Of a stretch of 64,000 nucleotides of DNA, positions 27,087 through 51,408 are shown piece by piece (the stretch's first letter is position 1; the number at the start of each line of letters is the position of its first letter). The DNA comes from Tilletia caries (taxonomy: Eukaryota > Basidiomycota > Exobasidiomycetes > Tilletiales > Tilletiaceae). The DNA is taken from positions 1,332,001-1,396,000 of the forward strand of contig JALUTQ010000003.1 in NCBI GenBank assembly GCA_032718865.1, given 5' to 3'. The position numbers were made by a program, and so were the translations under genes. The notes under the pieces were generated by a model that ran no database searches, was not told where the DNA came from, and worked only from the letters and a program-made list of their open reading frames with translations.

Positions 27087-29010
27087 ATGGAGCCAACTCA
27101 GCCATCCGACGCACGAACGTCAACACAGGCTGGTTTCCCGGACGAACGGCCCACACCGGACAAGCAGGCGCGGTCGGAAAAGCAGCCACTGCGATGGGCA
27201 GACATTGTCAAGGAGCTTCCTTATTCACCAAAGCAATACCAGATCGATGCCGTAGAGGCTACTGCCAGTGGAAAGGATGCGCTGGTCATCGCCCCGACTG
27301 GCTCTGGAAAGGGTTACATCCTCAACCTTCTACTCAAAGCTATGCCGGACAAGCGCTTTGTTGTCCTCGAGCCGCTCGTATTGCTACAAGAGGAACTCAA
27401 AGATCGGATTGGTAGCGAAGCAGTCTATGTACATGCGGGCAACCGCACTCCGGAGCTCCTCAAGGATATCAGGAAGGGAAAGTACCGGATGATCTTCCTC
27501 AGCCCCGAGATGGCCATCGGCAACTCGTTCCGGGAAGTCTTGATGGACAAGGTCTTCGAGGCCTCCCTCGGCGCCATCATCTTCGACGAGGCTCAAGTCC
27601 TCAAGGATTGGGCTGTCGACTCACAGTTCCGCCGTGGGTTCAAGGAAATCAGCGTTCTCCGTCATATGGTAAGCAGGACACGGCTGGGCGAACTCAAAGA
27701 CATGCACAGCTGAACCAGTTTGCCTCCTTCAGGCTCGCGTTCCAGGGATGGCCATGAGCGGCACACTCCCGGCAGCATACAGGGAGGAAGTCCGACGCCA
27801 TTTCGAGCTCCAGAACGAGGTGGTTATCGATGTCGGAACGGACCGTCCGAACATCGAGCTCGTAGTCCAGCCGATCCAGCACAGTTTGGTTTCCTACCTC
27901 GATGTCCTTGCCTGCCTGTCCGAGCTTCACCAGGATCCGCCCGAGACCGAGGAGCAGCGTGCTGCGCTGAAGGCGAAATGTATCGACAACAAAACTCAGC
28001 AGCTCGATCTGTTCCACAAGGTTAGGTCGTGGTACTCACGCTTCGGGCTCGAGGATGCAGTGCTGCTTGTCTCCGCCGACATGAGCGCCAGCCATCGCAG
28101 CCAAGTAAAGGTCCTGGTCGAGAAAGGAGAGGTCCTGTGCATCATCAGTACAAGCGTGCTCGGTATGGGCTCGGATATGCGCAAGATCCTCAGAGTCATC
28201 CTTTGGAGACTCACAGACTCCTTGGCCGCAGCCATGCAAAAGCTGGGACGGGCCGGTCGAGATCCTGCGACCAAAGCCGAAGCATTCATCCTGGCCGACA
28301 AGTGGTCCATCCCCCGTGTCACGCAAGAGGCACTCGACCGCGACGGGCAGCTCCCCACTGAGCCTGTTCCAGAAGGAGAAGAGAAAGGTGGTCTTGCTGT
28401 TCGGTCGGAGGTGACCAAGGCGAGGGAGGGGGCGGACGCCGACCTGCTGCTCGTGGTGCAGACCGCCTTGCTGCGCCGTGGATGTATTCGTCGCCTGGTA
28501 AATGATCTCCTTGGTCAGCCTTCGCCCGACCAGCTCCCTGCACCTCAGGACATCTTTGGACCGACCCTTGCCAAGGACTTACCGTGCTGTGTGGTCTGCT
28601 CGAAACGGGAAATCGGCCAGGTACCGGACGCGTATCTTCCTACGACGACAGAGGAAGGCAGGGCGCGGGACGGAATCACCAAGCTGCAGGAGATGGTGGA
28701 GCCCAAGCTTCGTCAGTGGAGGCTGTCAATGTGGAAGGAGGAGTGGAGCAAGCTCGACGCACCTTCTTGGCTCGGGGTTTCCTTCTACATGCGAGTCGAA
28801 GACATTGCCGACGTGGTGCGGAACCTCGGTAAGATCGACCGGGGCTTGACTGCGGAGGAAGACGGTGTTGTCGAGCGGTTCGTCGCCATGGAGGCTAAGT
28901 CCCTTGTCGTTCCACAGCTGACGGCCAAGCTGAAGGAGATCATCGCCGAGTTTGATGCCGACAAGGAGAAGGCTCGGCAGGAAAAGCGCAGCTTGAACCA
29001 TAGTACATAG
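27087..29010 (+). CDS. RecQ-like DEAD/DEAH-box helicase in a mobile element
   Basis: Exons 27,087-27,668 and 27,733-29,010 join in frame across a 64-bp GT-AG intron to give 619 residues. Helicase motifs in order: Q-motif region SPKQYQIDAV (47-56), Walker A APTGSGKGY (69-77), Walker B IFDEAQ (165-170; RecQ enzymes usually have DEAH), SGTLP (motif III region), STSVLGMGSDM (motif V) and QKLGRAGRD (motif VI). The C-terminus has a CCVVCSKRE cluster but no RQC or HRDC domain that I can recognise. Such enzymes unwind DNA 3'-5' with ATP. Its position between inverted ends with target duplications suggests it belongs to the mobile unit, perhaps acting on the terminal hairpins; that role is inference. 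The frame is intact. Confidence 0.82.
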
Positions 29011-29516: not shown

Positions 29517-29719
29517 TTTCTGAGGCTAGTTGACTTCTGGGACTCGGGTGCAGTGTGAGGGAGTGGAGCAAGAGAGAGAGAAGTGGGTGGTGGGGGGGGG
29601 GGGGGGACGCCCGTATCGCCCTCGTCATTTTTCCACGTGGCGGCGAAACTGGATCACGTGACCCCACTGTCCATTCAACCCCACTTCCAGCTCGGCGGGG
29701 GGGCTTTGCCCCCCAGGAA

Positions 29720-30056
29720 TATGCGGGAGCGGAGTGATTCACCTGAGACAACTGGACAATAAAGTCAGTGATGTTCTATGGAAAAAGGCTAAGTGAATTC
29801 GCTTATGAGGTACAAAGGGGAGCTCAGCTATTTATGGAAATGAGAGAAGCAGAAGGAAGAAGAGAGAAGCCGAGGCGTGGGAAGAAGAAGAAAAGAGAAG
29901 AGCCGGATGCCATGTCGTTGCGTAACGATCTGGAGGCAAGAAGGGAAAGGAAACGTGGAGCGAGCGATCGGGAGAGAGAACGGAACGGAGTGGAGTGATC
30001 ATGATCAATGGAAACTAAGTAGCTACTCGTCTATGATAGTCTGGCTCGCCAGCACA
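29720..30056 (-). repeat. 3' LTR of gypsy copy B
   Basis: 337 bp, TGTGCTGGCGAG to CGCATA on the minus strand. The pol stop codon at 30,023 lies inside it. Confidence 0.93.
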
Positions 30057-33000
30057 TCCCCACCGCCAGAAGCTGACCGTCCCTGGTCAGGGATGAGGCG
30101 AGAGAGGGCGTCAGCGTTCGTGTGGCGAGGGCCAGGCCGGTAGATGAATCGAATGTTTCCCAAGTGCGGCATAATGAGTGCTCGGCAGCGGGTAACAGTC
30201 GGCCCATAGGTAATGCTGTTGGTCGACCGCAACATTCGCTCCATGGGCGCGTGGTCGGTGATGACCGTGAGAGAGGCCCCCTCCAGCAGGTGGGCGAGCT
30301 TGTGAAAGGCCCACGCCAAGCACACGAGCTCTAGTTCCGCCGCCACGAGTTTTTCCTCGGCGGGAGAGGTCAATCGCGAGATGAAAGCGACGGGACGTTC
30401 GGACAGAACGAGAAGGTCGTTGCCCTCTTGGAACGATCGGGGGCGAGGAAGGGGTCCGCGGAGCAGGTCCAGGAGTTCAGGCGACGGGGCCGGCTGGACG
30501 GTGCCGACGTGGAAGTCGCGCATGCTCTCGGGGAGATGACGGACACGGCGCGGAGGAAGGGCGGCAGCATCGATGGCGACGGAAGAGTAGCGGTCCTCAC
30601 CCGAACGCGACGACGACAGCTCCCCCACCCCGCCCGAGATGTCCCCCTGTAGTGACCCGTCCGCTCGAAGCTCCTGACTACCCCCGTCAACTCGAAGCTC
30701 CGGACTACCGGCCTCAACCGCAGCCGACGACGGACGATGAGCCGCAAAGGGATCCATATCGGACGGGGCGAAGTCCAGTTGTTCGATGTTAAGGACCGGG
30801 TCGATGTCGAGATGAGGGGGAAGGCACAGTCGGACGCGGTGAGGGGACAGCACCTCCTCTACCTCGAAAGGTCCAAGCTTGCGCACATCCAACTTGTCGC
30901 CAATGGCGCCGGCGATGGGCCGGTCGCGAAGCCGGATCCATGCCCGCATGCCCGCGGAAATGAGCGGGGGCCGAGCGCGGCGGCTGTCGAAGCGTCGCTT
31001 CTGGTCGAGACGGGCAACGGAGATCTGCCGCCGAGCCGTGTCCAAACGTTCGTGGCCAGCCGCCAATCGTTCCTCGAACGAGCTAACGCCAAGATGCTCG
31101 TCGGCATCGAACACGGCATGCACCACGGACGGGTGACTCAGAAAGACGAGATCGAAAGGTCGGTGTCCCGTTACCGTCGACGGACTGCTATTCATCGCAA
31201 GCTCGACCGAAGGGAGAAGCCGACGGTCCCAGTGGGCTTTCGAGTCCAGAGACAAGACCTGCAGAACTTGCTGGACGATTTGGACGGCCCGCTCAACGCT
31301 GTTGGCCTGCTGATGGTAGGGGCTGGACGGAGTTGGGACAGCCCCAAGCGAAGCAGCAAGGGCGGATAGGACCGAACCAGAGACACGCGCCTCAGAGTCG
31401 GAGACTAGACGTTTCGGCCGCCATCCGAAACGAAGGATGCGATTGCTGACAATAGCAGCCACACCTTCCGCCGTGATCTCCTTGTGGCACGGTTCGAGGA
31501 GGATCATCCGCGAGAACAAATCCTGCAGCACCAGCGCGGCGTCGTTACCGGAGCGGGAACGAGGGAAGCCGTAAATGAGGTCGAAGGAGACCGCCTCGAA
31601 CGGCAAGGAAGCGTCCTTGGACACATCGAGCACGCCCGTCTTCGGAGCGGTCTTGATGCGCTGGCACTCGGTACAGTGCTTGACCCAGGCTCGGACGGAG
31701 GTAGCGAGGTGGGGACGCCAGAAGTGGTTGCGGACAGCAAACAACGTCTTGGTAAACCCGAAGTGACCACCGTCATCGTGAACCGCCTTCAGCACGACCG
31801 GAAGCGCGGCCAACGGGAGAGCAACGCGATCATCCACTCGCCGAACCAAGATCTCGTCTTGGATAACCCACTCGTCCGACGCGGTGGGCGTGTCTCGAGC
31901 CTGTCGGAGCAGAGGGGCGAAGTAACGATCCTCCTCAAGCCATGACCGCCAGCGCTGGCGAGCGAACGGGGATGGCAGCTGGGGGATCGTGAGGGTGTTG
32001 AGCTTGGCGTGAGGATTGGATGCGGGGACAGACGCGGAGGACGAAGAGACTTGGTGGAGGATAGCGGCCAGAGCGTGTTTGGAGGCGTCCGTGTACAAGA
32101 GGTAGGGACGGGAAGGATCGGGATGAGCGAGGACGGGAGGGTTAGCAATAGCATGCCGAAGACCCTCGAAGCTGTCCTGTTGTTCCGGACCCCACGCAAT
32201 CGGAACCCGTCCTGCAGCGACCGCTTTGCCTTCCGTGTTAACCAGTCTGGTATGGCCGTCGGCTGATTCGTAACGCCAGCCCTTCAGGAGGCGAGTGAGG
32301 GGCGCGGCGCGAATGGCAAAGTTGGGGACGAAAGCTCGGTAGTAGCCGAAGAGGCCAAGAGTGTGGTACAGCTCTTGGAGTGTGGTAGGGCGCGCTAGGG
32401 TGGCTATGGCTTGGGCCCTGTCCTCCCAGATAGCGACGCCCGCCCCCGACACCTTCCGACCCAGCAGAGTCAACGAGGGCACACCGAAAGTACATTTGGC
32501 CGGGCTGAATTTCAACCCAACGTCGGTGGCCGACTGAAGGAGGGTATCGAGGGCCTGGATGTGTTCCGCCATCGTGTCAGTGGCCACGACGGCGTCGTCG
32601 ATGTAAACGACGGCCTGATTCCACCGTAACGGCCCGAGCACCTTGTCCATCAGTCGTTGAAAGACGGCCGGAGCATTGCGGAGGCCGAACGGAACGGTTT
32701 TGTACTGAAACAATCCTTTGTGGCAGACGAACGCGGTTTTCCACCGATCGTCCTCCTTGACGCCCAACTGGTGGTAGCCTCGGATGGCGTCGAGAGAGCT
32801 GAACACCTTCTTCCCGCATAGGGTCTGGAAGATGGAGTCGATGGTGGGTAAGGGATATCGGTCGGGGATGGTGTCGGCATTGAGCTTGCGATAGTCGACA
32901 CAGAATCGCCACTTCCCCTGTTGGCGTACCATGACGACCGGGAACGACACTGGACTCGCCGAGGGCTCGATGACGTCCCAGTCGAGGAGCTGTTGGATGG

Positions 33001-33244
33001 CAGCATCCATAGCGGTCCGCTTCTCCGGACTGGCTCGACGGGGTGCTTCAGACTGAAGAACGGCTCCTGGTTGGAGCTGGATGCCCATATCGTGCCCGAC
33101 GATCCGGCCAGGCCGTCCGTCCAGGGCGAATGCGGCCTTGTGACGTCGGAGCAGGGCTACGAGGTCATCATCGGCCGTTCCATGCTCTCCAATACCGACG
33201 CGGAAGACGTCGTCCACCAACGTGGTGGCCACGTCCTGGGCCAA
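30023..33244 (-). CDS. Gypsy pol: RT, split RNase H with integrase nested inside (copy B)
   Basis: 1073 codons without a stop. RT: KWRFCVDYRKLN (~111-122), FVCHKGLFQYKTVPFGLRNAP and VVYIDDAVVATD (YIDD catalytic site). RNase H part 1: LLYTDASKHALAAILHQ (~380-397). Integrase: zinc finger HDDGGHFGF...CTECQRIKT, core Asp in SFDLIYGFP, Asp in VSDSEARVSGS, Glu in YHQQANSVERAVQ, then a GPY/F-like module KLGPFEVEEVLSPHRVRL. RNase H part 2 comes last (~945-1050): RPVAFISRLTSPAEEKL, AAELELVCLAW (Glu), VITDHAPMERML (Asp) and TNADALSRL. The usual gypsy order keeps RNase H whole before the integrase. The frame continues the protease frame after a TAA at 33,263-33,265, where copy A has a sense codon. Confidence 0.93.
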   Translation of the reverse strand: MAQDVATTLVDDVFRVGIGEHGTADDDLVALLRRHKAAFALDGRPGRIVGHDMGIQLQPGAVLQSEAPRRASPEKRTAMDAAIQQLLDWDVIEPSASPVSFPVVMVRQQGKWRFCVDYRKLNADTIPDRYPLPTIDSIFQTLCGKKVFSSLDAIRGYHQLGVKEDDRWKTAFVCHKGLFQYKTVPFGLRNAPAVFQRLMDKVLGPLRWNQAVVYIDDAVVATDTMAEHIQALDTLLQSATDVGLKFSPAKCTFGVPSLTLLGRKVSGAGVAIWEDRAQAIATLARPTTLQELYHTLGLFGYYRAFVPNFAIRAAPLTRLLKGWRYESADGHTRLVNTEGKAVAAGRVPIAWGPEQQDSFEGLRHAIANPPVLAHPDPSRPYLLYTDASKHALAAILHQVSSSSASVPASNPHAKLNTLTIPQLPSPFARQRWRSWLEEDRYFAPLLRQARDTPTASDEWVIQDEILVRRVDDRVALPLAALPVVLKAVHDDGGHFGFTKTLFAVRNHFWRPHLATSVRAWVKHCTECQRIKTAPKTGVLDVSKDASLPFEAVSFDLIYGFPRSRSGNDAALVLQDLFSRMILLEPCHKEITAEGVAAIVSNRILRFGWRPKRLVSDSEARVSGSVLSALAASLGAVPTPSSPYHQQANSVERAVQIVQQVLQVLSLDSKAHWDRRLLPSVELAMNSSPSTVTGHRPFDLVFLSHPSVVHAVFDADEHLGVSSFEERLAAGHERLDTARRQISVARLDQKRRFDSRRARPPLISAGMRAWIRLRDRPIAGAIGDKLDVRKLGPFEVEEVLSPHRVRLCLPPHLDIDPVLNIEQLDFAPSDMDPFAAHRPSSAAVEAGSPELRVDGGSQELRADGSLQGDISGGVGELSSSRSGEDRYSSVAIDAAALPPRRVRHLPESMRDFHVGTVQPAPSPELLDLLRGPLPRPRSFQEGNDLLVLSERPVAFISRLTSPAEEKLVAAELELVCLAWAFHKLAHLLEGASLTVITDHAPMERMLRSTNSITYGPTVTRCRALIMPHLGNIRFIYRPGPRHTNADALSRLIPDQGRSASGGGDVLASQTIIDE

Positions 33245-33262: not shown

Positions 33263-34327
33263 TTAGTCAGCGAACGCGTCGATCGGAAGAGCAGGATCCG
33301 TCTCGCCCACGGCCAGAGAAAATCCCACCGCCGCCTCATGTCGGGGCGTCAACGGACAGAGCGTGAAAGCCTCCGCTGCGGACGACACGGTGTCCCCTAC
33401 CCGAGCGGCGACGGCATCGGCGATGACGGTCCCACGGGGAAGGATAAAAGGAGCAACTCCGTGATTGCCCACTAAGATGTGGCGCTCGGAAGCATGGGTG
33501 AGCACCCCGACGGGACCGGCGAGTCGGACTGTCTCGTCAGGACTGACGCACATCCTAGGACCCACCGTGTAGTCGACGTCGGGCGCCAGACACGAGGCGT
33601 TGACCGGGACCCAAGCTTGAGTGCCAGCGGGCAAGTCCACGTCGTGCGTGACGCACAGCTCGGCCTCGGAGGCGAACGGCCCGGCGAGACGCTCATGGAC
33701 CTGGAAGGTGAAGGTGCCAATCCGTCCTCGACCGCGGACTGGGGAGATGCCGACGCCGTGGGCATCAATAAAGTCCAGGCCGAGGCACATGCCTGGGGCG
33801 AAGGACGGAAGCACATGGAAGTCCTGTTCCAGCTCAAGGTGGGCATGTTGGCCGTGTGGGTCCTGCGCCTGGATGAAGAGGGGCAGGGTGACCCATCCTA
33901 AGGTCGTGGCTGCGCCGATACCGTGGACCTTCATAGGTGTGCCGGTCGGCTGGCCTCCCATTCGACGCAACAGGTCGGCATCAATGCACGAAAGAGAGGC
34001 ACCAGTGTCAAGCAGCGACGACATGGCTCTTCCGTCCGTGTCGTTGATGCGGACGTGCATCGTCAGAGGGACGTGAGACCTGTAGCCCTTGCCAGTGCCG
34101 GTCGCGGCGTTGCGAGCCAACGGAACTATCCGCCCAAATGCCCGCTTCGGTTGGGAGAGGGGGGGCAGGGTCTCGTTGGGTCGGAGCTGACGGGTCGCCG
34201 AAAAGATGTTCTTCTGACTGAAGAAGAGCTGAGGCTCGGTCTCAGGCGGAACAGGTGAAGGGTCATCATGTGGAGCTGTGCTCATGGAATTGGACATGGA
34301 GGGCGCTGGACTTCGCTCCATGGGGAT
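33263..34327 (-). CDS. Gypsy aspartic protease region (copy B)
   Basis: The frame begins right after the candidate intron; the first ATG is at 34,321. The retropepsin site SSLLDTGASLSCIDADLL lies near residue 103 of 352, followed by VHGIGAATTLGWVTLPL and GLDFIDAHGVGI, the flap and C-terminal region. It should cut Gag-Pol during particle maturation. It ends at a TAA (33,263-33,265) in frame with the RT ORF; copy A has GAG there, so the stop is probably a lesion, though readthrough is not excluded. Confidence 0.88.
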   Translation of the reverse strand: MPMERSPAPSMSNSMSTAPHDDPSPVPPETEPQLFFSQKNIFSATRQLRPNETLPPLSQPKRAFGRIVPLARNAATGTGKGYRSHVPLTMHVRINDTDGRAMSSLLDTGASLSCIDADLLRRMGGQPTGTPMKVHGIGAATTLGWVTLPLFIQAQDPHGQHAHLELEQDFHVLPSFAPGMCLGLDFIDAHGVGISPVRGRGRIGTFTFQVHERLAGPFASEAELCVTHDVDLPAGTQAWVPVNASCLAPDVDYTVGPRMCVSPDETVRLAGPVGVLTHASERHILVGNHGVAPFILPRGTVIADAVAARVGDTVSSAAEAFTLCPLTPRHEAAVGFSLAVGETDPALPIDAFAD

Positions 34328-34408: not shown

Positions 34409-36246
34409 GGAGGAGATATCGGGCTCCTGTGAGGGAAGTTCCTCCTCCACCACCGTCTGCACCGAGGGTACCGCCATGTATGCATTGGCTGAACCAACAT
34501 CATTATCGAAGGGATAGTCGTCGTCCTCATGTATAGCCATGACGCGAACTTGAGGAACGAGGTGTATGTGTTCGAAGTTGAAGTGGTCGCCATTGCACTT
34601 GCTACATGGTCGATTGAGGCGCATCGGCGTCTCACGGCCATCGACCCGGTACTTGCGAGGCTCGCCATTCGCGGCGGGAATCACTCGGGCCGGGTCGTAG
34701 GCGGCGGCCATTGCCGATAAACCGGATGGTGCAGCTGGAGCTGCGCGCGGTGCTTGAGGTGCTGAAGCCGCAATGGGGCGAACAGCAGGAAGCAGCGGCG
34801 CGGAAGCGGAGCGTACCATGGCCTGTCCTTGCAATCGACGTAGAGCCATCGGCTGAGGTGTGGCTGGAGTCGTGCTGGGCACGCCGGCGCCGACTTCGTT
34901 GCTTGTGGCAGTTTCGGGGGGCGATGCGATGTTGTACATTGTGCGCCATTGAGGCTCGCACTCCCCCCCATCTCGTCCACAAGCTGCTCCAGGGTGGCAT
35001 CCTGGCGAGGGAGACGAAGCATCGCGATGAAGCTGGTCGGGAACCCGTCCTTGATCTCCGTGACGAGCTCGTCGTCTGTTTGGTCGAAACCGAACGCCTG
35101 GCGAAGTGCGCGCAGCTTGTCGAAGTAGTAGGCTGCAACCCACTCCGCCTCGGGAACCCAGACTCGATCTCGAGCTGATCGACGTTGCTCGCGTTGGTTG
35201 ACCTTGAAAGTCTTGCGCATCTCGACCTCCCATTTCTCGAAGGAGTTGAGCTCCTTGGCGTGCTTGTTGGAGAGACTCTCATGCCATTTGGCGGCGTTCC
35301 CTCGGAGAGCAATCGGCAGAGCGCGGAGGACGGCAGGGAGCCACTGTGGGTCCGAGTTGGTCCGGATAACGTTGCCGACGCGGCCGAGGAAGGCCTCGAG
35401 ACGGTATGGGTCTCCGTTGTACTCGCCGATGAATTCCTGACGGCAGACCGGCGGCGCACCGATTCGTATGTTCGGGGCCGGGGAGAGCTCAGGAGTCGGG
35501 GTGGCAGCGACGTGGCCACGGATCCGAATAGGGCTCTCACTGGAGTCGGCCTGGACGGGACGAGCAGGGGTGGAGAGGGCCGGTGGGGGACTCTGCACTG
35601 GTGGTTCGTCGTCGAAGGCCTCGTCGTCGTCCAGCGGATCGTCCTCCTCGACAGCGTCGGCCGAGCCGAGAATGTGCTCGAGGGACAGACCGATGCGTCG
35701 CAGCGCCTTCTTTATGCGGCCCTGCTCCGCCCCCGGCAGCTGCTTGTAGCGAGCCAGGGGGATGGTTCCGTACGGAGAGGTGGAGGGCGCCGGAGGAAGC
35801 TCGGAGGGGAGTGGTCGAGGAGTGACGGGTGGTTGAGCTGGACGAGAGCGAGATGGCCCACGAGTGGTGGTGACGAACCGATCCTCGAGGAGAGCCGGAC
35901 TCCAAGCGGTCTCCGCGGAGGGGCGAGTCCGTCCGGACGGAGGATGTATGGGCATGGTGGATGGTCGTCGGCTATGGTCGACCGGAGCGGCTTGATGGTC
36001 GCTGAGGGAATCGTCGACGGGGTCGTCGCGCACCGGCTGATGTCGTTGCTCGACGGCGACCAGACGCACAGCGACGTCGTTGAAGCGGTCGTTGAACTCC
36101 GTGCGCATGGTGCGCAGCTCCGTCACGATGGCGAGAGAACGGGGGTCGAGTGTCGGCACGTCGAGGCCCTCGTCGTGGTGCTGCTGAGGGAGAGCACGGG
36201 GACGACGGCCAGAAAGAGACGGTGCTGCTGATGCGTGTGAGGACAT
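34409..36246 (-). pseudogene. Gypsy gag (copy B) with a homopolymer frameshift
   Basis: Nearly identical to gag of copy A over the first ~425 codons (same gag domain text, EFIGEYNGDPYRLEAFLGRV). At 34,963-34,969 the minus strand has seven G where copy A has five (15,005-15,009), shifting the frame; the original continuation, with CSKCNGDHFNFEH, resumes in the next frame down to the candidate intron. As sequenced it would yield a protein without the zinc knuckle. A homopolymer length error in the assembly is an alternative explanation. Confidence 0.85.
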
Positions 36247-36528
36247 GGTGCTTCTTGAGGTCTTGTTCTTGAGGGGTGAGGAAGAAGAAAGAGGTAGAGA
36301 AGAGAAGGAGTAGAGTAGAGAGAAGTAGTGCGAAGGAGAAGAGTAGGGAACGTGCGAGGGTCAAAGAGAGGCTCGACGTTGGCGACGGAGAAGAGTAGAG
36401 GGCCGGAGCGAGAGCTGGGGCGGTCTGGAGTAGTTGGTGTCTCGACGAGAGAACTTGGAAGTTGTGATCGTCGTGGGCTGCTGAGGATCGTCGGGTCGAT
36501 GGTCAGCAAGAGAATCCTCTCATCACCA

Positions 36529-36875
36529 TATGCGGGAGCGGAGTAATTCACCTGAGACAACTGGACAATAAAGTCAGTGATGTTCTATGGAAAAAGGCTA
36601 AGTGAATTCGCTTATGAGGTACAAAGGGGAGCTCGGCTATCTATGGAAATGAGAGAAGCAGAAGGAAGAAGAGAGAAGCCGAGGCGTGGGAAGAAGAAGA
36701 AAAGAGAAGAGCCGGATGCCATGTCGTTGCGTAACGATCTGGAGGCAAGAAGGGAAAGGAAACGTGGAACGAGCGATCGGGAGAGAGAACGGAACGGAAC
36801 GGAACGGAGTGGAGTGATCATGATCAATGGAAACTAAGTAGCTACTCGTCTATGATAGTCTGGCTCGCCAGCACA
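36529..36875 (-). repeat. 5' LTR of gypsy copy B
   Basis: 347 bp; differs from the 3' LTR by two extra CGGAA units and a few substitutions. The primer-binding site TGGTGATGAGAGG follows at 36,528 reading leftwards. A GTTACGCAACG palindrome lies near 36,730. Confidence 0.93.
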
Positions 36876-37618
36876 AGGAACCCCCCCAACCAAAAGGACA
36901 ACCTCTCCGTCTCCATTGCTGTCATGCTTAATCCTGTTCGCTACGCGCTAACTCTAACCCGCAAAAAAAAAAAGTCAACACGATCCTAACTTAGCAACCA
37001 AGTCGATAAAAAGGGAAAAAAGAATGATAGCAAAAGGATTCTAACCGTGGACCTGCAGAATAGCAAGCCATATCACTAACCGCACAGCTTTGAGGGAAAG
37101 TTGATGCAGAGTTTGATTTGTGACGCACTATAAACAATCCTTACACGATCGCGTGAAAAGATAGTAATCAAAGCGCGCCAAGGCGCGCTCAAACTCCGAA
37201 TCGCCGGATCCACGTGGAAAATTGACGAGGGCGATACGGTCCTTTGGGGGGGGGGGGGGTTCGGAGCAGGAGGCTAGGGCCGAGGAATAGGTCATCGTGC
37301 TGACGTTTGATGTTTGTGAAGTTGAAATGGTTGTGGGAGGCGCAGCGTTGAAGTGAGACCAGCCGAAGGGGGTCCAAGATGTCCTCGCCGGGAGTCATGC
37401 GCGGAGGAGTTGCCCTGGGGGAGATTGGTAGGTGGCGAGGCATCGAGGGTTAGGACGGCGGGGGTTGGTGTTCAGAAAGGAGTGTGAGGGTGCGCGTCCA
37501 GGGCGGCCAGGAGCCAAAAGAAAAGGGTTGGTGGAATCGTAGGCAGAGGGTGAGCCGTCGTCCAGGGCGAGTGGCCAGTCCGAGTGTGAGTGGGGTCGGC
37601 ACGGGGTCGGCGGAGCGA

Positions 37619-40600
37619 CTACGGTGCCGTGGCGGGAGGTGGTGGTGCTGTGGGGAGGGCAGTGACGACCAGAGAGGATCCCTCGATGTGGAGGAGGGAG
37701 GATCCTAGGATCCAGCGCGCATGGAAGCGGTCGATGGCCACCTCGGATTCCTGGGGGAGTCTGGACCAGGCGGACGTGAGTGCAGACACCACTGATGCGG
37801 TGGTGAAGGACAGGACGTCCATGGCATCGCAGTGGTGGAAGTTTGGAGGGGAGGCACTGGTCCGGGCATCGCGACCCGCAATGGTGCGAGCCGTGTGCAA
37901 GGTGACGAGGACGGCGTTCCGCCACAGCACGAGTCGGCCACGGAGGCCGGGCAGGTGCTGCCATGCTCCGATGATAGTCCGCGGGCTGAAGGAGAGGGGT
38001 GTGGAAACGCCCATCGCCTGAAGGAGGGGCAGGCATGCGGACCAGATCCGTAGGGCCGCGGGGCACACGCAGATGCCGTGTGTCGGAGAGTCCGCCTCAG
38101 GGCAGCCGACCGGGCAATTGAGGCGCCGGGGGGGAGCGGGCCGGTAAGTCCACAGGTTTTGGCCTAGGACCAGGAGGCAAGCGGAGCGCATGTCCGTGGG
38201 CAGAGGACTGGCCTCGAGCTCGGTCCACACAGTCGACCAGAAAATGGGAGAGACGGGCGGGTCGAGCGTCCAGCCGGGGACGCGGGGCTCTTGTGGGGTG
38301 AGGGAGCGCCGGACCGAGCGGGGAGAGGCGGTGAGAATGGATCGTCCGGCGATTGTGAGTAGGTGCCAGGGGAACGAGGGGTACGCGGGATCCACCGAGA
38401 GGAGGATCCACGTTTCCGACGGTGTACGAGAGCGCAAGGCGTCTGGGGTGAGGAGCCGATAGGAGGTGGGCGAGCCCAGGCAGTGCGAGGTCAAGGCGGT
38501 AGCGAGTCGTGGCTCAAGTTGGGACCACATCGTGAGCCAGGGGAGGGAGGGGACACCTCCGAAGCGGTCGCGCGCCGAGGACAGGCGGTTGTGGGCCGTC
38601 GCTGAGCGACTTGGAGGTAGGCCCAGGTAGGAAGGGACGGGCGCAGCGGGGTGCGACTGAGGGCCGAGCCAGAGCATGTCACCGACCGTGACCCAGTGTG
38701 AGCGCAGGTATTTGACCTGGCGCTGGTCGGTGAGCGTAGGCGAAGGGAAGAGGAGGAGCCAGGGCAGCGTGACGAGAGCTGCTTCTGGTAGGTCCTTCCA
38801 TTCCGGGGCGAGTCCGAGGTCGACGCTGGCCAGTGCGTGAAGGAGTCGGCCGAACAGACCCTCGGCGCGCGCGTCGGCGTGCTGGAGGGCTGTGAATGCG
38901 GGGCTGGATCGAGCAAGCAGGATGGCGGGGACCGCCGAGTAGCGGTGGTGAAGCTCGGCGGTCAGGTTGAGACGTAGCCACGAGCCGATGGGGCCGGGGT
39001 CCGAGAGGTAGTTGCGCAAGAACGAGATGCTGAGGGCGATGGCCATGTGGTCCGGGTGAAGGAGGTTGAAGCCTCCGAGGGATCGAGGGCGCGTGAGGTC
39101 GTCCCGGGAGATGTATGGCTTGGTGGGGGCGAAGATGTAAGGGTTGAGAGCCTCGAAGTAGAAGTCGTTGAAATCGTGTGGTAGCCCGCCCAGGGAGATG
39201 GAGTGCCAAAGGCGCGATGTCAGAAATTGCTTAGATTTTTGTATGCGGCTCAGGATACTCACGCCAATGGTGGGGAAACAGAGGGCGCGAGTGCGGATAG
39301 CTGCGAGACGGGCGACGAGAGCGTTCGTGGGGGGTCTGGGCCACAGGGTGATGGGGTGACCCAGGTGGGTGAGGAATGCGCGGTGGTTTTGATTTGCGAA
39401 GCCGTATGACGCGATAGTGGCGGCTAGGGCGGAGGCGGCGGTGGCATCGGTGGGGGAACCGACGAGCCAGAAGGAGGATTTGGTGGTATTAATCTGAGCG
39501 TTTGAGGCGCGCTCGTAGAGGGTGAGGGCGGACTGAAGGGCGTGCCATTGCTGGAAACCACGGCTGGAGGCGTCGATGAAGATAAGGACGTCGTCGGCGA
39601 AGGCGAGAGAGGTGAGGAAGCCAAGTCCTGGAACCGTGATGCCCACTCCCCAGGCGCGTAAGAGGTCGAGGAAGGGTTGCAGGGTCAGGTTGTAGACGAT
39701 ACAGGACGATGGGTCGCCCTGGAGAACGCCTGAGAGGAAGGGAATGGGGGCGGTCATACCGTCGGCGGTAGAGACGCGGGTTGAGGCCGATGAGTAGAGG
39801 GCGGAGAGGAGCAGAAGCAGAAGAGGGGGGATACCAAGACGTTGTAGGCAGGCAAAGAGCCATTCGTGTCGGACGCGGTCGTAGGCCTTGCGTTGGTCGA
39901 GAGAGACCACGAAAAAGGCGGAGGGTGCGGCCGGATGAACCTCGGGTGCTGCCGCGGTGTCGATAAGTCCTTGGAGAAGGCCAGAGACGAGGGTGGTGCG
40001 GCGACCAGGGATGAAAGCCGCCTGGTTCCACGGGAGAAGGAAGGAGGCTACCGTGAGTAGGCGGGCAGAGAGCATGCGGGCCAGGGTACGTACATAAGAG
40101 TTACTGATGGAGATCGGACGGTAGTTGGCGAGGTTGGAGAGGTCTCCGGTCTTGGGGAGGAGGATGGTGCGTGCAGTGACTTCTAGAGAGGCGCCCGCGC
40201 CGAGGGCGTTGGCGAGAGAGGCCAGGAGGGGGCCTGCGACCGGAAGGAGTTCCGACCAGACGCGGTATGGCAGGCCGTCTGGCCCAGGGGAGGCTCTGCG
40301 GTTGGCGAGGCGGAGGGCGTTCGCCACCTCGTCGGTAGTGAAGGGAGTGGCAAGCCGGTCGGCGAGGGCGATGGGGAGAGAAGAGAGAAGATGGTGAAAG
40401 AGAGTAGCACAGTCAGTTTCAAAGGTGTGAGGGAGAGGCGGTGGGGTGTAGAGAGACGTGTAGAACGCGCAGACGGCCGCGAGTTTTTCGTCGGAGGACT
40501 CACAGAGGTGGCAGTCGTATGATAAGGTTGGGAGTGGTGTGGTTCGAGGTGAGGCCGAGGCTTTGGAAAGCCAAGAAGAGAGGCGAAGCTCGGCGGCGGC

Positions 40601-41449
40601 TAACCGAGAGGCGTAGGGGAGCGTTAGGGCGAGGTCCAGGGCGGCGAGGGCTTTGCGAAAGCGGGCTAGGAGGGAGGGGAGAGCGAGCATGTCCGGGGGA
40701 GAGCGACAGTCGAGGGAAATCAGCGCTGCCGATACTGAGGCGAGGTCGTCAAGCAATAGTCGTTGGGTGGCGCCATGGGCTACCGATAGGCGTTGAAGGT
40801 GATCCTGGGTTGCGATAGAAAGGAGCTTCCATGTTTGGAGGGGTGAGAGCGGGAGGGAGTCGCATGTAGGGTGGTAGCGGGCCGCAAACGCACGGACGTC
40901 TCGTAAGAAATGGACAGACTGCCAGAGGCCTGGATGGAGGGCCCAAGTGAGAGTTCTGTCGATAGACGTATCGGTGGAAGAGGCGGAAGGTGTCAATGGG
41001 GTGTCGATAAGTCCGAAGGAGGCGGACACCGCGTGGTGGTCGGAAGATGTGAAGACGGACGCGGAGGTGTGGAGTGAGGGGATGAAGGGTCCGGAAACTA
41101 GGATGCTGTCAAGTCGGCGAGCGCTGGTGAGGATTGGGGCGTCGGCAGCCCGAGTGATTCGGAAGAAAGTCCATCCGGGGTCTGTGGGGTGCAGGGAGCG
41201 AAAGGCATCAGTGAGGTGCAGAGGGGAGAGGAAAGTAGCAGGAGTGGACCAGGGGGTACCAGTAGGCAGGGGTAAACTCCCGTTGACGGGCGCGGAGGCC
41301 ACCAGGGCCGCAGTTGAGGGTAACGACGTGCAGGCTTTCCAGAGCAGATGGTGGAAGAACAGTGGAGACAGGAGATGAGGTGAGAGGAGAAGTATGATCA
41401 GATTCGGATATAGCGACGGAGATAAGAGGCACAAAGGCAAGGAGGACAC
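37619..41449 (-). CDS. LINE ORF2: endonuclease remnant, reverse transcriptase, zinc-knuckle end
   Basis: 1276 codons. Residues ~60-150 resemble only the C-terminal part of an APE-type endonuclease (TDAFRSLHPTDPGWTFF, ARRLDSILVSG, SSDHHAVSASF). The N-terminal half is missing: VVTLNCGPGGLRARQREF lies in another frame just upstream at about 41,300. The RT is complete: LLPKTGDLSNLANYRPISI, QAAFIPGRR, VVSLDQRKAYDRVRHEWL, GVLQGDPSSCIVYNL and SLAFADDVLIFID (FADD catalytic site). The C-terminus has CPVGCPEADSPTHGICVCP, a zf-RVT-like cluster. The RT copies element RNA at a nicked target. The endonuclease loss suggests this copy cannot nick DNA itself. Confidence 0.9.
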   Translation of the reverse strand: MSSLPLCLLSPSLYPNLIILLLSPHLLSPLFFHHLLWKACTSLPSTAALVASAPVNGSLPLPTGTPWSTPATFLSPLHLTDAFRSLHPTDPGWTFFRITRAADAPILTSARRLDSILVSGPFIPSLHTSASVFTSSDHHAVSASFGLIDTPLTPSASSTDTSIDRTLTWALHPGLWQSVHFLRDVRAFAARYHPTCDSLPLSPLQTWKLLSIATQDHLQRLSVAHGATQRLLLDDLASVSAALISLDCRSPPDMLALPSLLARFRKALAALDLALTLPYASRLAAAELRLSSWLSKASASPRTTPLPTLSYDCHLCESSDEKLAAVCAFYTSLYTPPPLPHTFETDCATLFHHLLSSLPIALADRLATPFTTDEVANALRLANRRASPGPDGLPYRVWSELLPVAGPLLASLANALGAGASLEVTARTILLPKTGDLSNLANYRPISISNSYVRTLARMLSARLLTVASFLLPWNQAAFIPGRRTTLVSGLLQGLIDTAAAPEVHPAAPSAFFVVSLDQRKAYDRVRHEWLFACLQRLGIPPLLLLLLSALYSSASTRVSTADGMTAPIPFLSGVLQGDPSSCIVYNLTLQPFLDLLRAWGVGITVPGLGFLTSLAFADDVLIFIDASSRGFQQWHALQSALTLYERASNAQINTTKSSFWLVGSPTDATAASALAATIASYGFANQNHRAFLTHLGHPITLWPRPPTNALVARLAAIRTRALCFPTIGVSILSRIQKSKQFLTSRLWHSISLGGLPHDFNDFYFEALNPYIFAPTKPYISRDDLTRPRSLGGFNLLHPDHMAIALSISFLRNYLSDPGPIGSWLRLNLTAELHHRYSAVPAILLARSSPAFTALQHADARAEGLFGRLLHALASVDLGLAPEWKDLPEAALVTLPWLLLFPSPTLTDQRQVKYLRSHWVTVGDMLWLGPQSHPAAPVPSYLGLPPSRSATAHNRLSSARDRFGGVPSLPWLTMWSQLEPRLATALTSHCLGSPTSYRLLTPDALRSRTPSETWILLSVDPAYPSFPWHLLTIAGRSILTASPRSVRRSLTPQEPRVPGWTLDPPVSPIFWSTVWTELEASPLPTDMRSACLLVLGQNLWTYRPAPPRRLNCPVGCPEADSPTHGICVCPAALRIWSACLPLLQAMGVSTPLSFSPRTIIGAWQHLPGLRGRLVLWRNAVLVTLHTARTIAGRDARTSASPPNFHHCDAMDVLSFTTASVVSALTSAWSRLPQESEVAIDRFHARWILGSSLLHIEGSSLVVTALPTAPPPPATAP

Positions 41450-46854: not shown

Positions 46855-47215
46855 TGTGCTGGCAAGTGGCCAGTAACCAGTGATGCAGCTTCTTCCACTT
46901 CTCTTTCTCAATTCTCTTCCTCTATGACTGCTGATCCCGTTCCGCTCCGATCCGACTCGGACACGTGGTTTCCACTCCAGCTCCTCGCAAACGTTGCGCA
47001 ACGTGCCACTTTCTTCCCTTCTTCTTCTTCTTTTTCTCATCACTCGCCACAGCGGCTTCTCTCCCTTCTCCGCCTCGGCTATTTAAGCCACTGTGTCTCA
47101 TTTCCCCCCTCTTGTAATTAGTCCGACACTGCATACTTGTTTCATCTCAGTTCTCTCCGAACACAGTCCTTAGTGAAAGCTAGGTGATTAGACCATCTCG
47201 GCCTGTGTTCGCACA
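46855..47215 (+). repeat. 5' LTR of gypsy copy C
   Basis: 361 bp, TGTGCTGGCAAG to GTTCGCACA. Contains GTTGCGCAACG near 46,993 and a TATTTAAG TATA-like element near 47,080. The 3' LTR is 360 bp once its insertion is removed. Confidence 0.9.
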
Positions 47216-50200
47216 TGGTGATGAGAGGGGATCTTTCACGGCCCCACAGTTTAACGACTACAGCGCCTCTCAACCCTTTCGTCCTCGCACTCGACGGCCT
47301 CACAGTCTCACGACTACAGCGCCTCCAGTGCCTCGACCTCCAGTACACCGTTCTCAGACATCTCCTCTTTCTCTTCCACACACGCCTTCTTCTCACCAAG
47401 ATGCTTTCGCCCTCGACGGTCGGCCAGGGCGGATCGAGGACCACGATATGAGGATCGAGCTGCTTCTCGATGCCGTTCTCCCCCCCGAACCTCCTCGTCG
47501 CGCCAGCCCCGAGAAGCGGACGGCTATGGACTCTGCGATCGAGCAACTCCTCGATTGGGAGGTTATCGAGCCTTCTCAGAGTCCCGTATCCTTCCCGGTG
47601 GTGATGGTGAAACAGAACGGAAAGTGGCGGTTCTGTGTTGATTATCGACAGCTCAACTCGAAGACCGTCCCGGATCGATACCCCCTTCCGACCATCGACG
47701 CTATCTTCCAGACTCTCACCGGGAAGAAATGGTTCAGCTCGCTCGACGCCAATCGGGGGTACCACCAGCTTGGTGTCGCGGCCGAAGACAGATGGAAGAC
47801 CGCTTTCGTATGCCATCGAGGCCTCTACCAATACAAGCGCGTCCCCTTCGGCCTTCGAAATGCCCCGGCAATCTTCCAGCGGCTCATGGACCAGGTCCTC
47901 GGCAGCCTACGATGGCAACAAGCGGTCGTCTACATTGACGATGCTGTCATTGCCACCGACACGCTCGAGGAGCACAACTCCGCTCTTGTTACCTTGCTCG
48001 AGAATGCGATGACGGTGGGTCTCAAGTTCAGCCCCGCCAAATGCACTTTCGCCGTGCCCAGCCTTACCCTCCTCGGCCGCAAGGTTTCGGGCGCCGGCGT
48101 CGCGGTATGGGCCGATCGCGCTCAGGCGGTTCAATCTTTGGCTCGCCCCACGACGCTTCAAGAGCTCTACCACACGCTTGGCCTCTTCGGGTACTACCGG
48201 GCTTTCATTCCCAAGTTCGCAGAGAAGGCTGCTCCGTTAACCCGGCTTCTCAAGGGATGGAAATATGAGTCTGTCGATGGTCAGACCCGGCTCGTGAACA
48301 CCGAGGGGAAGGCGGTCTCGGCCGGTCGCGTCCCATTGGCTTGGGGAGCTGAACAGCAGGACAGTTTCGAGGCCCTGCGCGCCGCGGTCGCCAACCCTCC
48401 CGTCCTGGCTCACCCCGACCCGTCTCGGCCCTACATTCTCTACACCGACGCCTCCAAAGACGCTCTGGCGGCCATCTTTCATCAGGTCTCAACCGCCCCC
48501 ACCCCAGTCGAGGTTTCCGACGCCATTGCTCGCGTGAACACCCTCTCGGTCCCTCATCTGCCTGCGGATTTTGCCCGGGAGCGGTGGAATGCCTGGTTAT
48601 CGGAGGACCGGCATTTTGGGGCCCATTCTGCGCTCCGTTCGGTCCGATCCGGCCTCGGTTCCTGACTGGGTGATCCGGCAGGACGTACTGGTGCGTCGCA
48701 GCGACGACCGGGTTGCGTTGCCGGCGGCAGGCTTGTCCACGGTGCTGAAAGGGGTCCATGACGAGGGCGGCCACTTCGGGTTTTGGAAAACCTTCCTGGC
48801 GGTCAGCCGTCACTTCTGGCGACCCCAGCTGTCGACTGCCGTCCGTGCTTGGGTAAAGCACTGTCAACTCTGCCGCCGAACGAAGACCGCCCCAAAGACC
48901 GGCATGCTGGACATCTCCCACGACCCGACGTTGCCGTTCGAGCACATCTCTCTCGATCTGATCTACGGTTTCCCTCGGGCTCGCTCGGGCAATGACGCCG
49001 CTCTCGTGGTACAGGACCTCTTCTCCCGCATGGTCTTGCTCGCGCCCTGCACGAAGGAGATCACCGCCGAGGGGGGGTGGCCGCTATCCTCAGTGACCGG
49101 GTCCTTCGTCTCGGCTGGAGACCGCGGCGGATCGTGTCCGACTCGGAGGCTCGAGTGTCCGGGTCCATCATGGCTCAACTCTGTGCATCGCTGAACGCAG
49201 AGAGCACCCCGTCCAGCCCGTACCACCAGCAGGCGAACAGCGTGGAGCGGGCGGTGCAGACGGTACAACGCGTCCTCCAGGTCTTGTCGTTGGATTCCAA
49301 GGCGCACTGGGATCGCCGGCTCCTTCCGTCTGTCGAATTGGCAATGAATGGCAGCCCTTCGACCGTGACGGGACAGCGCCCGTTTGACCTTGTCTTCCTC
49401 AGTCATCCGTCGGTCGTCCATGCCGTCTTCGATGCCGACGAGCACCTCGGCGTCAGCTCGTTCGCGGAGCGACTGGCGGCTGCTCAGGAACGGCTGGAGG
49501 AGGCTCGACGCCACATCACCATCGCTCGGCAGGAGCAGAAACGACGGTTCGATCACCGACGCACCCAGCCCTCGCTGATCGTACCGGGCATGCGTGCTTG
49601 GATTCGCCTTCGGGACCGACCAGTCGCCGGCGCCACGGTGGACAAGCTGGACGCTAGGAAGCTCGGCCCGTTTTCCATCTTGGAGGTTGTCTCGGCCCAT
49701 CGCGTCCGTCTCGATCTCCCTGCTTCGATGGACATTGATCCAGTACTCAGCATCGAGCAACTGGATCTTGAACCCATCGCTGATGATCCCTTTGCTGCGG
49801 ACCGCCCCGTCCTCCCTGCGCCGTCTCGCTCCTCACTCGTCGACGATGACGGTGCTTCGGTTCGACGGACAGGATCCTCGGCTCCGACCTTCGCTGGATC
49901 TGATGCGGACGAGGATGCGGGCCCCAGTCTGCCCCCACGCGTACGTCGGACCCCGCTGGGCCTTCAAGACTTCCAGCTCGGGACGGTCCGCGCCTCCCCT
50001 TCTGCTGCGCTACAGGACCTGCTTTACGGCCCCCTGTTCAAGCCCCAAACGCTGCAAGAAGGGGACACGCTCCTCACTCTCACGGAGCGGCCGGTCGCGT
50101 TCCTTTCTCGCCTCACCTCCATTGCCGAGTCCAAACTGGTGGCAGCCGAACTCGAGCTTGTGTGTCTGGCTTGGGCGTACCAGAAGCTCTCACACTTGCT

Positions 50201-50459
50201 CGAGGGCGTTATAACGACTGTCGTCACGGATCACGCGCCGATGGAGAGGATGCTCCGTTCAACCAATTCGATTGCATACGGGCCAATAATCACTCGCTGC
50301 CGGGCTGTTCTCATGCCTCACCTGGCCAACATCCGGTTTGTCTACCGCCCGGGCCCCCGCCACACCAATGCGGACGCGCTCTCCCGCCTGCCAACGATGA
50401 CTGTCGACCAGGGACGGCCGACTTTGTTGGGGGGGGATGTGCTGGCAAGTGGCCAGTAA
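47184..50459 (+). pseudogene. Gypsy pol with nested integrase (copy C), two frameshifts
   Basis: Three open frames make one polyprotein. 47,184-48,620: AFALDGRPGRI, KWRFCVDYRQLN, YQYKRVPFGLRNAP, VVYIDDAVIATD, then LYTDASKDALAAIFHQ. About 48,620-49,070: integrase zinc finger HDEGGHFGF...CQLCRRTKT and ISLDLIYGFP. 49,070-50,459: VSDSEARVSGS, YHQQANSVERAVQ, KLGPFSILEVVSAHRVRL, then the late RNase H half RPVAFLSRLTSIAESKL, AAELELVCLAW, VVTDHAPMERML and TNADALSRL. The order is the same as in copy B. Frame changes lie at GGGG near 48,617 and at a G7 run near 49,070. The last frame ends inside the 3' LTR. Confidence 0.9.
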
Positions 50460-51408
50460 CCAGTGATGCAGCTTCTTCCACTTCTCTTTCTCAATTCTAT
50501 TCCTCTATGACTGCTGATTCCGTTCCGCTCCGATCCGACTCGGACACGTGGTTTCCACTCCAGCTCCTCGCAAACGTTGCGCAACGTGCCACTTTCTTCC
50601 CTTCTTCTTCTTCTTTTTCTCACACTCGCCACAGCGGCTTCTCTCCCTTCTCCGCCTCGGCTATTTAAGCCACTGTGTCTCATTTTCCCCCTCTTGTAAT
50701 TAGTCCGACACTGCATACTTGTTTCATCTCAGTTCTCTCCGAACACAGTCCTTAGTAGACACTTTACGCACGCTCGTTGCAGGCCAACGGGAGAGGCTCG
50801 GAGCGCTTGAATCGCGAAATGAGGTGGGAGGAGCCATTTTTCAGGCCAACTCCATTAATAGAATTGCAACGACCTTCGTCCCATGCCATCTGCAAGGGAC
50901 ATGAGATCTGCACAGGGAAGACCATTGAACCACACAGGATGGACAGCTTTTCAGCTGGTTCTTCAAGAGAAGCCTGCACTTCTTCATTGCTGTTATATTC
51001 TTATATGCTGACTTTTCACTCCCTCACACAGGCCGCACAGGCTGAGGATGCAGACAAGCGAAGATGGTCAGTCTTAGGTTTTTTTTTTATAAACTATCGT
51101 ATGGAAAAATGAGCAAAGAGTCAGCTTGTGCTTGCACTGGGAAGATGGAAATTTGAAAGACGTCAACGAGCGAGAAAGACGGTCAAACAGCGCTCTCTGA
51201 GTCTCTGACAGGCTTCAGGCGCGATAAGTACAGACTTGCAGAGCCTCATCTCATCTCCAGGGGTTGCTCTCGCAACGACGTTGCGTAAAGTAAAAAATGA
51301 GGTATTCTTCGTTTCAGCGTTCCTGGCCGGGTGGGACGCAACGGCAGGCGTGCGTAAAGTGTCTAGTGAAAGCTAGGTGATTAGACCATCTCGGCCTGTG
51401 TTCGCACA
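50438..51408 (+). repeat. 3' LTR of gypsy copy C, interrupted
   Basis: Matches the 5' LTR except for the insertion at 50,757-51,364. A G-rich polypurine tract (TTGGGGGGGGA) directly precedes it. Confidence 0.9.
50757..51364. mobile_element. 608-bp TIR element in the LTR
   Basis: Perfect 17-bp inverted ends AGACACTTTACGCACGC, flanked by AGT at 50,754-50,756 and 51,365-51,367 (a 4-bp TAGT reading is also possible). Comparison with the intact 5' LTR shows the empty site. No transposase is encoded; the superfamily is not certain. Confidence 0.8.

What the first reader, a model, noticed from the sequence alone, without database searches (positions are those of the whole stretch)
30023..33244. Integrase nested inside the RNase H domain of a gypsy pol
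In copy B the RNase H beta1-beta2 hairpin (LLYTDASKHALAAILHQ, about 32,050-32,100) is directly followed by the integrase zinc finger, DDE core and GPY/F-like module. The rest of RNase H, from RPVAFISRLT through AAELEL, TDHAPMERM and ADALSRL, is the last ~110 residues of the polyprotein (about 30,090-30,410). Neither half has the full catalytic set; together they do. The ordinary Ty3/gypsy order is RT - whole RNase H - integrase. The break falls in the beta2-beta3 loop, where an insertion of ~550 residues could be tolerated. This implies either an integrase inserted in a folded RNase H, or two separately cleaved halves that reassemble.
Basis: partly seen in the sequence, partly recalled or inferred. 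Interest (0 to 1): 0.87.

Follow-up and report, generated by a model that had tools for sequence, protein, structure and literature searches.

The report
Integrase nested inside retrotransposon RNase H
In a large family of jumping genes of Tilletia bunt and smut fungi, the part coding for the enzyme that inserts DNA copies sits in the middle of the part coding for an RNA-removing enzyme, an arrangement kept by selection in several species and not found described in the papers searched.

Summary
In the 1073-residue pol ORF (30023-33244, minus strand) RNase H is cut in two. The first piece covers RNase H profile positions 1-52, the second 55-100. A Ty3-type integrase lies between. On solved Ty3 RT the pieces fall on 325-374 and 383-477. 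It is not one damaged copy. In this genome, whose contig sizes match Tilletia caries TC1_MSG, 70 of 78 truncated first pieces have the second 1.3-2.0 kb downstream. Of 141 database homologues 115 show RT-RH1-IN-RH2; none shows another order. All 141 are Tilletia, from two lists cut at 120. The RNase H D-E-D-D set and integrase HHCC/DDE set are conserved; dN/dS is about 0.02-0.10 in both pieces. Splicing is not supported. Best reading: a Ty3/Gypsy branch whose RNase H folds from both pieces, with the integrase as an inserted domain in the beta2-beta3 loop. Whether protease frees the integrase is unknown. Packing of the pieces rests on indirect evidence; co-variation did not support it.

The parts
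29715..29719 (.). target-site duplication AGGAA (other copy 36876-36880)
29720..30056 (-). 3' LTR of copy B (337 bp); the pol stop codon lies inside it
   Evidence: 4 mismatches and 10 gap positions against the 5' LTR
36529..36875 (-). 5' LTR of copy B (347 bp)
36512..36528 (-). putative primer binding site next to the 5' LTR (complement ends in ...CATCACCA like a tRNA 3' end)
   Evidence: sequence; tRNA not identified
30057..30067 (-). putative polypurine tract GGCGGTGGGGA next to the 3' LTR, inside the pol reading frame
   Evidence: sequence
34681..36246 (-). gag-like ORF (521 aa)
   Evidence: PF03732 E 8.6e-4, under its curated cut-off
33263..34321 (-). protease ORF (LLDTGAS); same frame as pol, separated from it by an in-frame stop in this copy; relatives without that stop exist
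   Evidence: (PF13650 E 3e-5)
30023..33244 (-). pol ORF: RT - RNase H first piece - integrase - RNase H second piece
32459..32917 (-). reverse transcriptase (RVT_1, residues 110-262; YIDD)
   Evidence: best PDB relative Ty3 RT 4ol8, E 1.3e-52
32039..32194 (-). RNase H first piece RH1 (residues 351-402, catalytic D386): profile PF17919 1-52
31970..32050 (-). linker 1, variable
31649..31798 (-). integrase H2C2 zinc finger (residues 483-532)
31292..31582 (-). integrase DDE core (D555, D616, E651)
30776..30901 (-). integrase C-terminal SH3 / GPY/F-like domain (residues 782-823)
   Evidence: E 5.9e-6, under cut-off; 7q5b aligned over model residues 86-503 of a homologue
30434..30775 (-). linker 2, variable, predicted mostly disordered
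30095..30400 (-). RNase H second piece RH2 (residues 949-1050; catalytic E972, D997, D1045): profile PF17919 55-100
46855..50756 (+). copy A: second element of the same branch, LTR (46855-47174) - RT/RH1/IN/RH2 with broken frames - LTR (50438-50756); no room for gag and protease between the LTRs

Best explanation
This is a branch of Ty3/Gypsy LTR retrotransposons of Tilletia whose pol order is protease - RT - first piece of RNase H - whole integrase - rest of RNase H. Shown: the order, its recurrence, the complementarity of the two RNase H pieces, and purifying selection on the parts. Inferred: the two pieces pack into one RNase H with the D-E-D-D centre built from D386 (first piece) and E972, D997, D1045 (second piece). 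The integrase leaves and re-enters through the beta2-beta3 turn on flexible linkers, so RT, RNase H and integrase start life as one chain. It works like a Ty3 reverse transcriptase plus Ty3 integrase; the integrase may stay fused, or be cut out by the element's protease while the RNase H pieces stay together. The rearrangement probably happened once in an ancestor of the present Tilletia families.
For: Profile pieces complement without overlap. On Ty3 RT (4ol8) they align at 325-374 and 383-477 (the second alone only E 0.02). 115 of 141 homologues have RT-RH1-ZF-DDE-SH3-RH2 by best hit of each piece; the other 26 lack one or more pieces; none has another order. In 118 aligned sequences D386 117, E972 118, D997 115 (3 gaps), D1045 110 (7 gaps, 1 Glu); the seven integrase HHCC/DDE residues 113-117 each. 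Pairwise identity goes down to 46%, median 57%, in the 102-sequence set. dN/dS in pairs with dS above 0.5 and not saturated: RH1 0.02-0.08, RH2 0.04-0.10, DDE 0.02-0.08, zinc finger and SH3 up to 0.18. 7 of 22 loci keep RT to RH2 in one frame. RT tree: 28 split rows are one side of a branch, one change, in 92% of bootstrap trees. AlphaFold models of two family members give RH1 and RH2 as confident secondary structure (10-residue blocks mostly 85-94 pLDDT) with disorder in linker 2, and strands beta2 (13 residues) and beta3 (16 residues) longer than their local hairpins can pair.
Against: The packing of the pieces was not seen directly: no coordinates were available, fold searches were filled by integrase and RT rows, pTM is low (0.38 and 0.54), and the two models share one set of aligned sequences. 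Co-variation between the pieces was not enriched (2 of the top 300 pairs, 0.20-fold; Meff 72), and register scans were inconclusive. Of the 78 truncated first pieces in the genome 4 had no second piece in the list, and one of these (C35:522786) has the second piece contiguous in another frame, like an ordinary element with a frameshift. Branch support for the split clade is modest (87/44) and only 8 canonical rows were used. No enzyme activity is shown.
Confidence: 0.8

Rival explanations
1. The protease cuts on both sides of the integrase, giving RT-RH1, free integrase and a small RH2 peptide; the RNase H is active only when RH2 re-associates, in cis or with the partner chain of an RT dimer.
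For: The element family carries a protease; both linkers vary in length and at least linker 2 is predicted disordered. In Ty3 the integrase is released by proteolysis, RT is an asymmetric homodimer and RNase H activity comes from subunit B (PMC5371799, passages read).
Against: No clear motif shows in the linkers (conservation line, muddied there by gaps); no cleavage data exist. In Ty3, CA-RT-IN but not CA-IN rescued cDNA synthesis, so an RT-IN link can be useful.
Confidence: 0.35
2. The integrase segment is a retained intron: splicing joins RH1 to RH2 and makes a normal RT-RNase H, unspliced RNA makes the integrase.
For: A GT follows RH1 in 21 of 22 loci, because the next residue is Val there.
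Against: The codon before RH2 is GAA in 7 of 22 loci, so no AG is kept at the border; synonymous sites are saturated between many pairs, so kept sites should stand out. A fungal donor consensus occurs in linker 1 of 1 of 22 loci; the block would be about 1.5-1.7 kb. Seven of these 22 loci (L040-L046) are near-identical, so they are not 22 independent cases. Copies with all pieces in one frame keep RH2 in frame with the integrase (7 of 22).
Confidence: 0.04
3. Damage or assembly artefact: one element inserted in another, or a rearranged dead copy.
For: Many copies have broken frames; copy A is broken within pol, and copy B has a stop between protease and RT.
Against: Same order in five Tilletia species and in 70 of 78 loci here, with purifying selection.
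Confidence: 0.01
4. RH1 is only a degenerate tether and RH2 a self-sufficient RNase H with a substitute first strand (the hairpin just before RH2).
For: A hairpin with a recurring motif precedes RH2 (30 of 101 rows printed; strands).
Against: The Asp of that hairpin is not kept (absent in the window copy), while D386 in RH1 is Asp in 117 of 118; profile comparison of the hairpin with RH1 gave nothing.
Confidence: 0.06

Closest known systems
Ty3 (Ty3/Gypsy, Metaviridae) of budding yeast: RT 4ol8, integrase complex 7q5b
   Same: RT, RNase H tetrad and integrase match; 4ol8 is the best sequence relative of the RT part, 7q5b ranks first by Foldseek for both models
   Different: Ty3 has an unbroken RNase H in RT, before IN (PR-J-RT-IN in PMC5371799); here the integrase interrupts RNase H
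Ordinary Gypsy families in the same genome
   Same: Same superfamily and host; in L001-L003 and L005-L007 both RNase H pieces are contiguous and integrase pieces follow, in L004 the DDE piece follows
   Different: RNase H is whole and precedes the integrase
Gmr1-like Gypsy elements and Ty1/Copia (recalled; Gmr1 papers seen only as a search listing)
   Same: Precedent for a moved integrase in pol
   Different: There the whole integrase lies before RT and RNase H stays whole
Inserted domains in an RNase H fold: HNH inside the RuvC of Cas9, insertion domains of DDE transposases (recalled, no call)
   Same: A discontinuous RNase H fold that carries an inserted domain
   Different: Not a reverse-transcriptase RNase H, and not a nested integrase

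Membership tests
Ty3/Gypsy LTR retrotransposon | LTRs with short target-site duplication | tested here: met
   LTRs 337/347 bp, 4 mismatches and 10 gap positions, TSD AGGAA
Ty3/Gypsy LTR retrotransposon | RT of Ty3/Gypsy type | tested here: met
   PF00078; best solved relative Ty3 RT, E 1.3e-52; placed with canonical Gypsy-type RTs of the genome, no Copia RT was included
Ty3/Gypsy LTR retrotransposon | aspartic protease and gag upstream of RT | tested here: met
   PF13650 E 3e-5, over its cut-off; gag only weakly, PF03732 E 8.6e-4, under cut-off
Ty3/Gypsy LTR retrotransposon | integrase downstream of RT with H2C2, DDE and GPY/F-SH3 parts | tested here: met
   (rve and SH3 models under their cut-offs in the window copy)
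Ty3/Gypsy LTR retrotransposon | canonical pol order RT - whole RNase H - integrase | tested here: not met
   filed as a variant branch descended from Ty3/Gypsy, not as an ordinary member
Chromovirus | chromodomain after the integrase | tested here: not met
   no Pfam chromodomain among families at E up to 1 in the window pol
Gmr1-like or Ty1/Copia order | integrase before RT | tested here: not met
   integrase follows RT in all 115 full-order proteins
Functional RNase H | D-E-D-D catalytic set | tested here: met
   117, 118, 115, 110 of 118, divided between the two pieces
Functional RNase H | both pieces fold as one domain | tested here: inconclusive
   secondary structure fits; packing not seen; co-variation not enriched
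Functional RNase H | enzyme activity | not testable with these tools
   needs a bench assay

The most novel reading that the evidence does not exclude
A naturally split reverse-transcriptase RNase H: protease excises the nested integrase, and RNase H switches on only when its two pieces meet again, possibly across an RT dimer, so that RNA removal is tied to maturation of the particle; failing cleavage, a single RT-RNase H-integrase chain would copy and insert the element.
Probability: 0.35. Interest if true: 0.9.

Novelty: new variant of a known kind. Interest (0 to 1): 0.8.

Why it matters
Pol domain order is used to classify LTR retroelements, and RNase H is normally treated as one unbroken domain next to RT. 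A selected, many-copy branch with integrase inside RNase H shows that the order can change in a way that cuts a catalytic domain. It offers a natural test of whether RT-RNase H and integrase can work as one chain, of how protease processing is ordered, and of how large an insert the RNase H fold bears. Annotation that expects the usual order would call such elements truncated.

Tried and rejected
Splicing of the integrase block: rejected on border codons and lack of donors. Vestige of a second RH1 in front of RH2 (duplication-deletion origin): profile comparison found nothing, so the route of the rearrangement is open. Co-variation between pieces: RH1-RH2 pairs 0.20-fold among the top 300, a list dominated by RH2-RH2 pairs, perhaps from poor alignment there. 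Ladder scans: some registers passed the 99% null, but 35 antiparallel registers (those with at least 6 pairs scored) and 16 parallel ones were tried, so this counts for nothing. Foldseek and VIA against PDB: RT and integrase rows or integrase rows only among the 50 shown; no row isolates the RNase H, so packing stays untested. IMG/VR scan: 188 pattern matches, no relative. Relatives outside Tilletia: two protein searches list the best 120 of 171 and of 160 hits, all named Tilletia; the rows below were not seen, so restriction to Tilletia is not shown. Pairing count: RH2 rows typed were 126 of the 150; I dropped 24 (20 matches to whole RNase H elements and 4 second fragments of loci already listed). 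Literature: searches gave no title or abstract describing this; listings were cut (for example 30 of 84, 15 of 1,721). Passages only were seen of PMC3248453, PMC10684912, PMC9172201, PMC5371799; all other papers as listing.
Full report
What was checked. The finding says that in a Gypsy pol at 30023-33244 (minus strand) the integrase sits inside RNase H. The ORF is 1073 residues. Pfam gives RT 110-262, PF17919 (RNase H) 351-402 covering profile 1-52 of 100, integrase zinc finger 483-532, rve 566-644, SH3_Tf2-1 782-823 and PF17917 949-1009 covering 30-90 of 105; rve and SH3 are under their curated cut-offs here. Given alone, the first piece covers PF17919 1-51 and PF17917 1-24, the last piece PF17919 55-100 and PF17917 30-90. 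L051, about 63% identical to the window copy in RH1, shows the same split (1-48 and 55-100), and a canonical element (L007) covers 1-100 in one stretch. Against PDB sequences the first piece aligns to Ty3 RT 4ol8 residues 325-374 and the last piece to 383-477 (E 0.02, weak by itself). In Ty3 these are neighbours, 8 residues apart.

Where it is. Two contig sizes equal figures published for Tilletia caries TC1_MSG (N50 1,798,756 = contig C36; largest contig 2,689,501 = C7; PMC10684912, passages). The paper has 46 contigs and 38.18 Mb, the copy held here 40 contigs and 38.10 Mb. Tilletia caries is a basidiomycete, Exobasidiomycetes.

How common it is. The PF17919 search of the genome scored 150 of 322 candidates. 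78 of the 150 end at profile position 68 or earlier, the other 72 at 91 or later. 70 of the 78 have an RH2 match 1.3-2.0 kb downstream on the same strand, 4 more at 2.2-4.1 kb, 4 none (RH2 list of 126 of 150 rows). Of those 4, C35:522786 has the second piece contiguous but in another frame, like an ordinary element with a frameshift, and C4:2128469 is followed by the integrase start. The N-terminal integrase piece (residues 402-489) has 115 matches. Twenty loci, chosen because they hold both pieces, plus the two window copies show RT, RH1, zinc finger, DDE, SH3, RH2 in that order; 7 of 22 keep all in one frame, the rest are broken in places. Seven of them, L040-L046, are near-identical.

Controls in the same genome. 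In L001-L003 and L005-L007 RH1 and RH2 are contiguous and integrase pieces follow; in L004 the DDE piece follows; in L008 no integrase piece was matched. In L059-L062 this query did not match RH2 (nor RH1 in L060 and L061); their whole RNase H is shown, and a zinc-finger match follows it.

Other species. Two protein searches gave 171 hits (E up to 1e-20) and 160 hits (E up to 1e-5); each listed 120, all named Tilletia (laevis, controversa, caries, indica, walkeri). Of 141 distinct proteins 115 have the order RT-RH1-ZF-DDE-SH3-RH2, 2 lack only RT, 24 lack other pieces, 0 show another order (best hit of each piece). The source names seen are hypothetical protein, reverse transcriptase, RNA-directed DNA polymerase, integrase catalytic domain-containing or uncharacterized protein. 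Because lists were cut at 120, relatives outside Tilletia are not excluded; an IMG/VR scan found none.

Is it kept by selection. In 118 sequences the RNase H set is D386 117, E972 118, D997 115, D1045 110, and the seven integrase HHCC/DDE residues 113-117 each. Pairwise identity of the 102-sequence set has minimum 46% and median 57%. dN/dS in pairs with dS above 0.5 and not saturated is 0.02-0.08 for RH1, 0.04-0.10 for RH2, 0.02-0.08 for DDE, and up to 0.18 for zinc finger and SH3. For many pairs dS is saturated, and for two near-identical pairs ratios up to 0.69 mean little. The RT tree (36 rows: 28 split, 8 canonical, all canonical rows from this genome) needs one change; 92% of bootstraps agree, branch support 87/44, with warnings on long branches. 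A single old origin is the simplest reading.

Could it be an intron. The residue after RH1 is Val in 21 of 22 loci, so GT is there by coding. The codon before RH2 is GAA in 7 of 22, so no AG is kept. 1 of 22 loci has a fungal donor consensus in linker 1. Splicing is unlikely.

The element. LTRs 29720-30056 and 36529-36875, TSD AGGAA, 4 mismatches and 10 gap positions between the LTRs, so a recent insertion. The pol stop lies in the 3' LTR, and the putative polypurine tract is inside the reading frame. In this copy an in-frame stop separates protease and RT; relatives without it exist. Gag is weakly recognised.

Novelty. Eight searches of an open-access library gave no title or abstract that describes integrase within RNase H; listings were cut and subscription papers are mostly missing. 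Gmr1-like and Copia orders, recalled, move the whole integrase in front of RT. I file this as a new variant of Ty3/Gypsy: descent is supported by RT and integrase, the ordinary order was tested and not met.

Noticed in passing
window 46855-50756: Copy A is a short element: LTR, about 3.26 kb holding broken pol (RT-RH1-IN-RH2), LTR, without room for gag and protease; its LTRs differ by 3 mismatches and 1 gap, so it may have moved as a non-autonomous form.
   Followed up: partly
window 37619-41449 (-): 1276-residue ORF with a reverse transcriptase domain (PF00078, E 6e-21) and no other Pfam match at E 0.001: perhaps a non-LTR retrotransposon.
   Followed up: partly
window 27087-29010 (+): Two adjacent ORFs with the DEAD and Helicase_C parts of a helicase, divided between ORFs, next to the retrotransposon; looks RecQ-like (recalled).
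   Followed up: partly
window 30400-30439 (residues 936-948) and homologues: A hairpin with a recurring motif (GPxxRPR...ERPVAF) stands directly before RH2 (30 of 101 rows printed); it is not aligned to Ty3 and may brace the inserted integrase.
   Followed up: partly
window 36512-36528: Putative primer binding site resembles a tRNA 3' end (...CATCACCA); the tRNA was not identified.
   Followed up: no
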